Of a stretch of DNA of 64,000 nt, positions 13,481 through 63,026 are shown one piece after another. The translations under genes were made by a program, and so were the position numbers. The DNA is taken from assembly GCA_017416535.1 (NCBI GenBank), contig JAFQCG010000001.1, positions 62,001 to 126,000 on the forward strand, read 5' to 3'. The stretch comes from Bacilli bacterium. GTDB taxonomy: Bacteria; Bacillota_I; Bacilli_A; RF39; UBA660. Position 1 is the first letter of the stretch. Each line of letters opens with the position of its first letter. Below the pieces are notes generated by a model that saw only the letters and a list, made by a program, of their open reading frames with translations, was not told where the DNA came from and ran no database searches.

Positions 13481-14255
13481 AATTTGTAATTAATGGTTTA
13501 TTGTATTCTAATCTTAGTTGGTCAGCTACGGTTACTATAAACTCTGAGTTTGTAGGTTTAGCTTTATCAATATCAACACTATGTCCAAAAATGTCTTCCA
13601 TTAGTTGCCAGTTACCTCTATTCCAACTTATTTCTATTGCATGGCGTATTGCCCTTTCTACCCTTGACACTGTTGTATTAAATTTTTTGGATATTTCTGG
13701 ATATAGTTCTTTAGTGATACCTCCTACAATTTCTGGTCTTTCATATACTATTGATATTCCTTCTCTTATATATTGATATCCTTTGATATGAGATGGTACT
13801 CCTAGTTCATGAAGTGTCTTGGTTATAGATACTTGAAGGTTATTATGATATAAGTCAATTGACTCTCCTCCGTATTTAATACCTGTTGATACTTCTTTTA
13901 TTCTTTTTTCTAAATCTTTTAATTCAAATGGTTTTAACATAAAGTAACTTACCCCAAGTTCTGATACTTTTCTTATCATTTCTTGAGTATTGTATGAAGT
14001 TAAAACAATTACTTTTTTATCTATATTTTTCTTTTGCATATGTTCTAAAACACATATTCCATCTTTATTAGGCATTATTAAATCAAGTAATAATAAATCT
14101 ATTTCATCTTTATTACTTTCTAATATGCGTAGGGCTTCTGAACCATCATATGCCTCTTGAGATATTTTGATTTCTGCGTTATCTTCAAAATATTCTTTAA
14201 TCATTTCTACTAAACTTCTATTATCGTCTACTACTAGTACATTTATCTTTTTCAT
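13479..14255 (-). CDS. spo0A: Sporulation master response regulator Spo0A
   Basis: Spo0A is the phosphorelay end-point that switches Bacillota cells to stationary-phase and sporulation programmes. The 258-residue product has a receiver domain (D10, D11, phosphoacceptor D58 in LLLLDLIMP, Lys in MLKPFE) and the diagnostic Spo0A DNA-binding domain. That domain contains [35 protein letters not shown] and [22 protein letters not shown] at 14279 would add eight residues, but the ATG at 14255 has AAGGAG seven bases upstream and the family N-terminus. Spo0A marks a spore-forming or recently spore-forming lineage. It is transcribed alone. Confidence 0.97.
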
Positions 14256-32413: not shown

Positions 32414-32529
32414 CTTTTATCAAGAATGAGGGAGAGAGTTAGCTCAGTGAACTCATACCAACCTGCAAGGAAGTAAGGTGGTAATGCTAACAACGATGAA
32501 GGAGGCCACAACTCTTTCAAGAGTTTTTT
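32414..32529 (+). promoter_or_regulatory. SAM-I (S-box) riboswitch with transcription terminator
   Basis: The aptamer pairs CTTTTATC (32414-32421) with GATGAAGG (32495-32502) as P1. It carries the S-box core pieces ATCAAGA, GAGGGA, CAGTGAACTC, CCAACC and AAGGTGGTAAT in order. It is followed by a terminator AACTCT-TTCA-AGAGTT plus T-run (32510-32529). TGAAGGAG at the 3' side of P1 can instead pair with CTCTTTCA of the terminator, giving an antiterminator. High SAM should thus stop metK transcription. Confidence 0.92.
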
Positions 32530-54948: not shown

Positions 54949-55054
54949 CCTTGAAATGCATTATTTATTCCTAAATCGGTTTTTTAAGGCATTTAAGTTT
55001 GGTTCAAGGCCTTTTATAGAATAAAAAAATAATAATATTTTTTTATTCTATAAT
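54949..55054 (+). promoter_or_regulatory. agrBD control region with inverted and direct repeats
   Basis: TATAAT (55049-55054) lacks a consensus -35. It overlaps the right arm of a 16-base perfect inverted repeat (55015-55030 and 55037-55052; arms TATAGAATAAAAAAAT and its complement). Upstream are direct repeats TTTAAGGC (54983-54990) and TTCAAGGC (55003-55010) with 20-base period and an inverted CCTTGAA (54949-54955). Two repeats two helix turns apart upstream of a poor -35 fit a LytTR-type activator such as AgrA. This is inference. Confidence 0.5.
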
Positions 55055-55077: not shown

Positions 55078-55671
55078 ATGAAAGAAAAGTTTCTTGATTT
55101 TACAATTAATTTTTTAAAGCAGAACAACACTTATTCTGAGAATGAAATTAAGAAACTTAGATATGGACTTGAAGGAATTTATTTAACTATTACTAAGACC
55201 ATTGTTATTCTTATCATTGCTTTATTACTAAATTTTCTAAAAGAAATTATTATTTTACTTTTACTATTTAATATTATTAGATATTTTTCTTTTGGTTTTC
55301 ATGCGGAGAAAAGCAGTGAATGTTTAATTCTATCAATTTTTAACTTCTTACTTGTTCCATATATATTTTTAAAGTTAAATACTTCCCTATTTGTTAATTT
55401 AATTATATGTGGCATATGCTTGATACTACTTTTAATATTTGCGCCTGCAGACACGCCTAAAAGGCCTTTAAAAAATAAGAAAAAAAGAATTATTAGAAAA
55501 ATAATTACTTTGGTGATTGGTTTTATATATACATGTCTTGTAATTATATTTAAAAACAATTATATATCTCAATTACTTGTTTGTTGTTTAATAGCAACAG
55601 CAATAGTTGTTAATCCTTTGACTTATTTATTATTTGGTCAAACTTATAACAATTATAAAAAAATTAATTAG
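55078..55671 (+). CDS. agrB: AgrB-like peptide-processing endopeptidase
   Basis: A 197-residue membrane protease of the AgrB family, which cuts and cyclises an AgrD precursor. Catalytic H75 and C82 (FGFHAEKSSEC) have the same seven-residue spacing as His77 and Cys84 of Staphylococcus aureus AgrB, preceded by NIIRYFSFG. Four to six membrane segments follow, with a basic KRPLKNKKKRI loop. ATG 55078 lies eight bases after AAGGTG; earlier GTG/ATG codons at 55069 and 55072 are too close. The agrD-like frame follows by 46 bases. Confidence 0.93.
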   Translation: MKEKFLDFTINFLKQNNTYSENEIKKLRYGLEGIYLTITKTIVILIIALLLNFLKEIIILLLLFNIIRYFSFGFHAEKSSECLILSIFNFLLVPYIFLKLNTSLFVNLIICGICLILLLIFAPADTPKRPLKNKKKRIIRKIITLVIGFIYTCLVIIFKNNYISQLLVCCLIATAIVVNPLTYLLFGQTYNNYKKIN

Positions 55672-55717: not shown

Positions 55718-55840
55718 ATGAAAAAAAGATTAGCTAGTATCTTAGCTGCAATCGCATTATTTGCTACTGCTGGAGCAAGTTTAGGATGCATTTGGATTCT
55801 TAGTGATGAACCAAATTCTTGTGGAATATTTAATGACTAA
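55718..55840 (+). CDS. agrD: AgrD-like autoinducing peptide precursor, 40 residues
   Basis: Starts MKKRLASILAAIALFATAGA, an amphipathic/hydrophobic leader for membrane targeting. It then has S-L-G-C24-I-W-I-L28 followed by S-D-E-P and a short tail NSCGIFND. Cyclic-lactone precursors have a Cys four residues before the cut, then an acidic-Pro motif. C24 to L28 would form a five-residue thiolactone CIWIL with a short exocyclic tail. A strong AGGAGGTG lies seven bases upstream. The second Cys in the tail is unusual. Confidence 0.85.
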   Translation: MKKRLASILAAIALFATAGASLGCIWILSDEPNSCGIFND

Positions 55841-55843
55841 AAC

Positions 55844-55873
55844 AAAAAAACTAGATATTAATCTAGTTTTTTT
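55844..55873. terminator. Bidirectional terminator between agrD and agrC
   Basis: AAAAAAACTAGAT-ATTA-ATCTAGTTTTTTT hairpin with U-tracts on both strands; the agrC stop codon lies in the loop region. It ends both convergent units. Confidence 0.9.
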
Positions 55874-57150
55874 ATGCTTAATGTTTGAATGTAATAGTCA
55901 TCTATAACTTCTTGTTTAGATTCTAACCATTTATTTTTAGATAAAATATTGTTTGCATAATATAGTCCATTTCCTCTACCTTCTCCTTTTGTAGATATTC
56001 CTTTTTTATTTATATCAGAAAAGTTTTCCGGCATATTAAACGAATTTGAAATAACTATATTTATTTTATCTTTTAGTTCATATACTTCTAATAATAAATA
56101 TTTATTTCTTGTCTCAGCTGCTGCTTCAATTGCATTATCAAAATAGATACCTATTAGTTTACAAATTGTTTTCATTTGACTTTCATCTAATTTTTTCAAT
56201 TTAGAGTTTGATTTTAAACTAACATCTACCACAAGATTGATTTTTTTCTTTTTAGCAATTGCAGCCTTATAGTACATTAATCCTTTTAGACCTCCCTTAG
56301 GTAGGTCTTTTAATTTATTTACTACTTCATCTTCAATATTTATATTATCATCCAATATTTCGTCAATTTTAGATTTTACCTTCTTGTCTTTGGCAACAGT
56401 TCTTAGTACAGCCAATTGATTTTTATATTCGTGCCTATTCAATTGTTCTTTCTCAATCCATTCTTCAAAATTTTGAATATAATTAAATAAAACATCATAT
56501 TCATCACTTAATACTTTATAATCATTTTTACTATCTATATAAATATAAGTTATTACAGAAAAAGAAGCTAAAATTATTAAATAAGACATTGAAGTTGTGC
56601 TATAAATTTTACTGTTTGCAAAGTTATATACAATATATACAAATCCTATTATTAACATTATTAGATACACTATATTCAATAATGGCTTTTTGTTTCTAGC
56701 ATTATTGTAAAAATCCCTTAATTTCAATAATACTATTCTGCTGCTTACAATTAAATTTCCTAATATTGCTATTAAAAAATTAGCTAATACAGACAATACA
56801 TTATTTATTCTAATTTCTTCTTGAGTAAAGAAAATTCTTAATATAGTTGTCACCGCTACATCTGATATAGTTAATATCATCATTAACATAGCACCTACAA
56901 TTGTCGCTTGACTTAAGTCTAATTTAAATACACTTTTATACACAACAATATTAAGTAGAAAAATCATTATTGTATATATAGCTGTGTACTCTTCTTTATG
57001 AAGAAACACTGTAGCAAGTGCAAATAATATAATATATAAATAAGAACTTTTTGTTATTTTCGTTTCTCTTTCAGTAATTCTTTTTACAATATTCAAACTA
57101 GCTATATACATTATCAAGAAGCATATGAATTTACTAACTACTTGTAACAT
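55858..57150 (-). CDS. agrC: AgrC-like sensor histidine kinase
   Basis: A 430-residue membrane kinase of the AgrC/HPK10 type. Six or seven hydrophobic segments lie in the first 205 residues. The HisKA-like helix with H240 in LNRHEYKNQLAVLR and a GHKL ATPase domain follow: N-box IGIYFDNAIEAAAE and G-box GEGRGNGLYYANNIL. It should sense the cyclic peptide. It follows agrA with a 17-base overlap, and is convergent with agrB and agrD, unlike the agrBDCA order of staphylococci. Confidence 0.93.
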   Translation of the reverse strand: MLQVVSKFICFLIMYIASLNIVKRITERETKITKSSYLYIILFALATVFLHKEEYTAIYTIMIFLLNIVVYKSVFKLDLSQATIVGAMLMMILTISDVAVTTILRIFFTQEEIRINNVLSVLANFLIAILGNLIVSSRIVLLKLRDFYNNARNKKPLLNIVYLIMLIIGFVYIVYNFANSKIYSTTSMSYLIILASFSVITYIYIDSKNDYKVLSDEYDVLFNYIQNFEEWIEKEQLNRHEYKNQLAVLRTVAKDKKVKSKIDEILDDNINIEDEVVNKLKDLPKGGLKGLMYYKAAIAKKKKINLVVDVSLKSNSKLKKLDESQMKTICKLIGIYFDNAIEAAAETRNKYLLLEVYELKDKINIVISNSFNMPENFSDINKKGISTKGEGRGNGLYYANNILSKNKWLESKQEVIDDYYIQTLSIKKLD

Positions 57151-57865
57151 TGTCTATTACTCCTTTTTTCATATCTCTTGATATGGTTTCTAATACTTCT
57201 CCATTTTTAAATTTTATTGAATTTTCTTTTATATCAAATTTATTTATATGATCTGAATTTATTATTGAACTTCTTGATACTTTTACAAATCTTTCATCTA
57301 GTATTTCCATTAGATGACTTATTGTTCCTGGATATGGCATAACATCTTTATTAATTAAATGTAATATGCATCTTTTACTATCTTGTTCTTTGTCTATAAA
57401 TACAATTTCTCTATAGTCAATATTATATACTGTGTTTTTATATACAAACTTTAATGCTTTTGGTCTAGTATCGTAATATTTCATACATATATCTAAAGAT
57501 TTATGTAAATGTGGAATACACTTATCTAGTTTATTTATGAAATCCACTAACATTAGTCTTTTACCAAATGCATCATATTTATATTCATTATATGAAGTAA
57601 TAATTATAATCATAGATACCCAATCATTTAGTTCTTCTCTAATCATTCTTGCAGCATCTAATCCTGAACCTTCATTTGTTTTAATATCTAGTAAATAGAC
57701 TTTAAAATCAGTATTTGTTTTTGCATAGTTATTAAATTCCTTATTATAACCAGAAAATAATTTACAATTATAATCATGGTCATATTTCATCATAAATTTA
57801 TCAATTTCATTTTTATATTCTGTTGCAAGAACTTTCTCATCCTCACAAATTACAAAACTTATCAT
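57134..57865 (-). CDS. agrA: AgrA-like LytTR response regulator
   Basis: A 243-residue regulator. Receiver acidic E8-D9 and phosphoacceptor D60 (FKVYLLDIKTNEGSG), then a LytTR DNA-binding domain from about residue 140 (VFIDKEQDSKRCILHL, ISHLMEILDERFVKVSRSSI, NSDHINKFD). ATG 57865 follows GGGTGAG; a longer start at 57892 lacks one. It is the first gene of the agrA-agrC unit and probably activates agrBD through the repeats at 54983-55010. Confidence 0.92.
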   Translation of the reverse strand: MISFVICEDEKVLATEYKNEIDKFMMKYDHDYNCKLFSGYNKEFNNYAKTNTDFKVYLLDIKTNEGSGLDAARMIREELNDWVSMIIIITSYNEYKYDAFGKRLMLVDFINKLDKCIPHLHKSLDICMKYYDTRPKALKFVYKNTVYNIDYREIVFIDKEQDSKRCILHLINKDVMPYPGTISHLMEILDERFVKVSRSSIINSDHINKFDIKENSIKFKNGEVLETISRDMKKGVIDNVTSS

Positions 57866-62974: not shown

Positions 62975-63026
62975 ATTATCTTCTCCTTCCGCCATGACTA
63001 ATAAAGTCATAGTAATTCAAATGCGT
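62975..63026 (-). promoter_or_regulatory. rpmE leader RNA with hairpin before the ribosome binding site
   Basis: On the minus strand CTATGACT-TTATT-AGTCATGG forms a hairpin (63011-62992) directly ahead of GGAAGGAGAAG. L31 leaders are a known autoregulatory RNA class in Bacillota; the match here is by position and shape, not by a covariance search. Confidence 0.45.

What the first reader, a model, noticed from the sequence alone, without database searches (positions are those of the whole stretch)
55718..55840. Predicted new autoinducing peptide with thiolactone ring CIWIL
The 40-residue frame is too short for most gene callers. A hydrophobic leader, C24-I-W-I-L28 and then S-D-E-P reproduce the AgrD plan. 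The ring Cys-Ile-Trp-Ile-Leu with a short tail (G or L-G before Cys) would be very hydrophobic and unlike the S. aureus rings. The precursor's C-terminal tail is short and holds a second Cys (C35) that AgrD proteins lack.
Basis: inference. Interest (0 to 1): 0.68.

Follow-up and report, generated by a model that had tools for sequence, protein, structure and literature searches.

The report
Agr-type peptide signal, six-residue ring
A 40-residue gene that standard models overlook encodes a ring-shaped bacterial signal peptide of the known agr quorum-sensing type, in an uncultured gut Bacilli lineage whose members mostly appear to use a ring one residue larger than usual.

Summary
The ORF is real (55718-55840 +, 40 aa, strong Shine-Dalgarno). 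It lies 46 bp behind an AgrB gene and convergent to an AgrC-like kinase and an AgrA-like LytTR regulator: a complete agr-type locus. No curated model recognises this AgrD, but relatives link it: 63 of 65 distinct family loci with AgrB carry an AgrD-like ORF just downstream (the other two end at contig edges), and 35 of 40 aligned members match the AgrD model TIGR04223. Conservation centres on C24 and on D30-E31-P32; C35 is confined to this genus. Six-residue rings are known from Clostridium acetobutylicum, so this is a new member of a known kind with clade-wide variations (six-residue ring, convergent BD/CA). Product, ring size, sensing and regulon are inferred, not shown.

The parts
55718..55840 (+). 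agrD-like precursor gene, 40 aa; leader 1-20, predicted exocyclic tail S21-G23, predicted ring C24-S29, excised tail D30-D40
   Evidence: ring and leader boundaries inferred
55787..55804 (+). codons of the predicted six-residue ring C24-I-W-I-L-S29
   Evidence: DEP anchor; inference
55078..55671 (+). agrB: membrane cysteine protease/cyclase, 197 aa; H75 and C82 in 68 of 68 aligned AgrB rows, R68 in 67 of 68
   Evidence: Pfam PF04647 E 4.3e-34; alignment
55858..57150 (-). agrC-like sensor histidine kinase, 430 aa, GHKL domain, convergent to agrBD
   Evidence: PF14501 E 1.1e-7; AgrC model NF046015 E 2.1e-13 but far under its cut-off
57134..57865 (-). agrA-like LytTR response regulator, 243 aa, overlaps agrC by 17 bp
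   Evidence: PF04397 E 6.7e-10; AgrA model NF046049 E 8.4e-19, under its cut-off
55844..55873 (.). perfect 13-bp hairpin with A and T runs between the agrD and agrC stops, likely bidirectional terminator
   Evidence: fold -11.8 kcal/mol, z -6.2, 0 of 200 shuffles as good; the G+C-based terminator scan found none
54949..54976 (+). two imperfect direct repeats (CCTTGAAAT and CCTAAAT) with LytTR-like spacing upstream of agrB; candidate AgrA operator
   Evidence: seen by eye in the sequences; the derived pattern matches once in the own genome and 0 times when read backwards; weak lead

Best explanation
An agr-type quorum-sensing locus. AgrB (H75/C82) cuts the 40-aa precursor before D30 and joins the carboxyl of S29 to the thiol of C24, giving a six-residue thiolactone C-I-W-I-L-S. 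A signal peptidase or a MroQ-type CPBP protease removes the leader, probably after A20, leaving S-L-G-[CIWILS]. The released peptide is sensed by the convergently encoded AgrC-like kinase, which phosphorylates the AgrA-like LytTR regulator, which acts at least on its own agrBD promoter. Shown: genes, order, conservation, spacing. Inferred: cyclisation, ring size, leader cut, sensing, autoregulation.
For: AgrB, GHKL kinase and LytTR regulator adjoin it. An ORF with Cys and [EQ]P lies behind agrB in 57 of 65 distinct family AgrB loci; six of the eight misses hold an AgrD-like ORF with Ser, Thr or a changed EP, two end at contig edges. 35 of 40 aligned members match TIGR04223 and 15 of 40 match PF05931 at E up to 1. 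E31 and P32 are invariant, C24 and D30 present in 90% or more of the 40 rows. Residues from Cys up to DEP: 6 in 50, 7 in 5, 5 in 2 of 57. In S. aureus the AgrD contacts modelled with AgrB are D33-K139 and E34-R70, right after ring residue M32 (passage of PMC10482373; that the ring is C28-M32 is recalled); R68-H75-C82 here has the same spacing as R70-H77-C84. Six-residue rings have precedent, CVLVTL of C. acetobutylicum (passages of PMC12312760 and PMC4916163). 57 of 57 rings differ; AgrC residues 91-180 are 30-33% identical to the congener's against 73-83% for 211-300. The own genome has 3 CPBP-protease and 4 signal-peptidase matches.
Against: The window AgrD itself matches no curated AgrD model at E up to 10; its only hit is a lipoprotein leader model (E 0.6). 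It lacks the tail Pro-x-x-Pro that 36 of 57 members have. S29 is polar, whereas the residue before DEP is not Ser in 48 of 50 six-residue rings. The MreB-like neighbour is also only 70% identical to the congener's, so fast divergence is not confined to agr. Two agrB-lacking relatives keep the regulator and one agr locus lacks it, so the pairing is not strict. No product has been seen.
Confidence: 0.78

Rival explanations
1. Same system, but AgrB cuts after L28, so the ring is the common five-residue C-I-W-I-L and the excised tail begins S-D-E-P.
For: Most characterised AIPs have five-residue rings (passages of PMC4916163 and PMC12312760). L28 is a more usual, hydrophobic ring end than S29.
Against: DEP, whose D and E correspond to the residues modelled in contact with AgrB in S. 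aureus (passage of PMC10482373), is one residue further from Cys in 50 of 57 members, and the extra position is large and hydrophobic (F, I, L, V, M or W) in 42 of those 50.
Confidence: 0.18
2. A tiny lipoprotein or secreted peptide: A-S-L-G-C acts as a lipobox, C24 is lipidated and the peptide sits in or is shed from the membrane.
For: LP_plasma leader model E 0.6 for the window member; 5 of 40 members match it at E up to 1, best 0.0061.
Against: Four relatives have Ser and one Thr at the Cys position, which lipoprotein processing does not accept (established knowledge); fixed place behind agrB; E-P invariant.
Confidence: 0.03

Closest known systems
agr system of Clostridium acetobutylicum (AIP CVLVTL)
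   Same: Six-residue Cys ring; agrBD and agrCA as separate transcription units (passages of PMC10301443 and PMC12312760)
   Different: Here agrBD and agrCA are convergent, and the neighbours are secA, hpf, csp and tagO/mreB-like genes, not a LanM-like gene. The ring sequence is unrelated.
Staphylococcus aureus agrBDCA
   Same: AgrB R-H-C register; AgrD Cys, then D-E after the ring; AgrC/AgrA type kinase and LytTR regulator
   Different: There the four genes form one transcript and the ring has five residues (passages of PMC12312760). Here two convergent pairs, six residues, tail without P-x-x-P.
NCBIfam TIGR04223 (AgrD family cyclic lactone autoinducer peptide)
   Same: 35 of 40 aligned members match at E up to 1, best 1.3e-10
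   Different: The window member does not match at E up to 10: its tail has diverged, with C35 where many relatives have the second Pro

Membership tests
agr-type quorum sensing (AgrB/AgrD/AgrC/AgrA) | AgrB-family membrane protease with catalytic His and Cys | tested here: met
   PF04647 117.9 bits, cut-off 23; H75 and C82 in 68 of 68 rows
agr-type quorum sensing (AgrB/AgrD/AgrC/AgrA) | short precursor next to agrB with hydrophobic leader, Cys/Ser, and acidic D-E-P tail start | tested here: met
agr-type quorum sensing (AgrB/AgrD/AgrC/AgrA) | linked GHKL sensor kinase and LytTR regulator | tested here: met
   PF14501 and PF04397 over cut-off; staphylococcal equivalog cut-offs not reached: 50.2 of 500 and 68.1 of 400 bits
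agr-type quorum sensing (AgrB/AgrD/AgrC/AgrA) | secreted cyclic (thio)lactone that activates the cognate kinase | not testable with these tools
   needs mass spectrometry and a reporter assay
PF05931 staphylococcal AgrD | match of the protein to the model | tested here: not met
   window member no hit at E up to 10; 15 of 40 members hit at E up to 1
TIGR04223 quorum_AgrD | match of the protein to the model | tested here: not met
   window member no hit at E up to 10; 35 of 40 members hit at E up to 1
bacterial lipoprotein | lipobox with invariant Cys | tested here: inconclusive
   LP_plasma E 0.6, 10.7 bits against cut-off 24; Ser or Thr replaces Cys in 5 relatives

The most novel reading that the evidence does not exclude
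A whole family of uncultured gut Bacilli uses species-private, very hydrophobic six-residue thiolactone (in some species Ser- or Thr-lactone) signals from an agr locus at a fixed place in the chromosome, tied in many members to sporulation control through Spo0A, with the signal renewed at every speciation.
Probability: 0.35. Interest if true: 0.65.

Novelty: new member of a known kind. Interest (0 to 1): 0.42.

Why it matters
It adds an unrecognised signal gene to an uncultured gut lineage, shows that curated AgrD models miss diverged precursors that gene order and intermediates recover, and gives a family-sized natural series (57 rings, all different, mostly six residues) for testing how AgrB measures ring size and how AgrC follows a changing signal.

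Tried and rejected
Rejected: C35 as the ring nucleophile (only the window and its congener have it, 2 of the 40 rows of A1, read by eye; it stands where many relatives have the second Pro of P-x-x-P). Rejected as main reading: a lipoprotein. Second agrB in the genome: none at E up to 0.001. Solved AgrB structure: no PDB chain matched at E up to 1. A G+C-rich intrinsic terminator was not found; an A/T-rich hairpin was. A regulon by operator pattern gave only the agr promoter itself. In one search the rows for AgrB and Csp are wrong (the helper required an ATG start and picked another ORF); for these I use. The family table leaves out five loci from other families of the class (L024-L027, L029); of these L024 and L025 have Cys plus four residues plus YEP. 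No structure prediction was run, since a complex would have been needed. Literature searches were made; I saw no paper on agr in this lineage in those listings, which does not prove absence. Of each paper cited I saw passages only.

Full report
Observation. The 40-residue frame at 55718-55840 is exactly as described. It starts behind an AGGAGG, 46 bp after the stop of a 197-aa AgrB (PF04647, E 4.3e-34). Of 140 ATG ORFs of 30-70 aa in the window it is the only one with a Cys 4-6 residues before [DEYH][EQ]P.

Locus. On the opposite strand, 18 bp beyond the agrD stop, end a GHKL kinase (55858-57150) and, overlapping it by 17 bp, a LytTR regulator (57134-57865); the staphylococcal AgrC and AgrA models are the best-scoring NCBIfam models for them but lie far below their cut-offs. 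A 13-bp perfect hairpin with A and T runs separates the convergent pairs. The genome has one AgrB match only. The two named records found are MAGs titled Bacilli bacterium, one from water deer colon.

Family. AgrB matches were found in 27 of 60 genomes (own genome included), AgrD matches in 61 of 193 family genomes at the loose limit E 10 (some weak rows are surely chance, since they lie in frames of several hundred residues) and, with the profile of 40 AgrDs, in 28 of 395 genomes of the class at E 0.01, all 28 in this family. In 21 longer loci a csp gene lies beside agrB in 20 (not in L074), and an agrC-like gene on the opposite strand follows in 19 (L062 and L077 end at contig edges); TagO-, MreB- and SecA-like neighbours recur. 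The shared place in the chromosome fits vertical descent; I built no tree. In 14 genomes without an AgrB match, searched by their TagO gene, two keep the LytTR regulator alone between TagO and Csp (L111, L112), which suggests loss of agrBDC; the other 12 show no agr gene in the stretch held, some of which is short. One agr locus (L065) lacks the regulator at its place.

Precursors. After removal of duplicates 65 family AgrB loci remained; 57 had an ORF with Cys and [EQ]P by rule. Of the eight misses, two end within about 120 bases after agrB, and six hold an AgrD-like ORF that the rule excluded: Ser in place of Cys in L097, L104, L105 and L110, Thr at that place in L109, and Cys with DEE in L108. 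These six were assigned by eye; each has six residues from the presumed nucleophile up to the D or E of the tail. Six-residue spacing is thus found in 50 of 57 by rule and in 56 of 63 with these. The others are seven (5) and five (2). Two AgrDs from other families of the class have Cys plus four residues plus YEP, the usual five-residue plan.

Ring. In S. aureus AgrD the residues D33 and E34, right after M32, are modelled in contact with AgrB K139 and R70 (passage of PMC10482373); that the ring there is C28-M32 I recall. The window AgrB has R68, H75 and C82 in the spacing of R70, H77 and C84, in 67, 68 and 68 of 68 rows, and E31-P32 of AgrD are invariant in 40 rows. I therefore place the cut before D30 and the ring at C24-S29. 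A six-residue ring is reported for C. acetobutylicum (passages). Against this stand the commonness of five-residue rings and the unusual Ser at the ring end.

Signal diversity. All 57 rings differ. Between window and congener the AgrC residues 1-210 are 30-50% identical in 30-residue blocks, residues 211-300 73-83%, while SecA, Hpf, Csp and TagO are 93-98%; an MreB-like neighbour is only 70%, so the contrast is not perfect.

C35. Only the window and one congener have it; the third congener's agrD runs off its contig (L047). Nineteen of 57 tails contain a Cys somewhere.

Why models miss it. The tail reads DEPNSCGIFND, not DEP-x-x-P as in 36 of 57 members; 35 of 40 members match TIGR04223 at E up to 1, the window member does not at E up to 10.

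Upstream. In 68 distinct agrB upstream stretches of 230 bp (family and class loci together) the 7-mer TTCGACA/TGTCGAA, which I recall as the core of the Spo0A box, occurs 25 times in 21 stretches against 0.7 expected from shuffles; it clusters near -100, in four stretches as a pair 10 bp apart. Spo0A is found in 19 of 21 genomes tested, own genome included. The window and its congeners show no exact box there. The intergenic stretch is shared with csp, so which gene it serves is open.

Verdict.

Noticed in passing
upstream of agrB in relatives, e.g. L066, L068, L050, L042: Exact TTCGACA/TGTCGAA 7-mers (recalled as Spo0A box core) 25 times in 68 upstream stretches against 0.7 expected, often near -100 and in four as a 10-bp tandem; absent in the window's genus.
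   Followed up: partly
window 13515-13826 (-): A Spo0A C-terminal domain match (E 7.8e-40, G000:C4:75515-75826) falls inside the window, in a 1.5 Mb genome.
   Followed up: no
L109, L097, L104, L105, L110, each near base 1500: AgrD relatives with Ser, or in L109 Thr, at the ring nucleophile position, suggesting lactone signals.
   Followed up: partly
L111 2647-3336, L112 795-1490: LytTR regulator retained alone between TagO and Csp in genomes without an AgrB match.
   Followed up: no
L065 6341-7762: agrBDC present but no agrA at its usual place; only about 135 bp between the agrC and TagO matches.
   Followed up: no
L028: A distant second AgrB in G011 (about 20% identity) with its own AgrD-like ORF, CVFMSIL before HQP.
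   Followed up: no
window 32414-32502 (+) and 62983-63012 (-): SAM riboswitch and L31-Firmicutes leader by Rfam.
   Followed up: no
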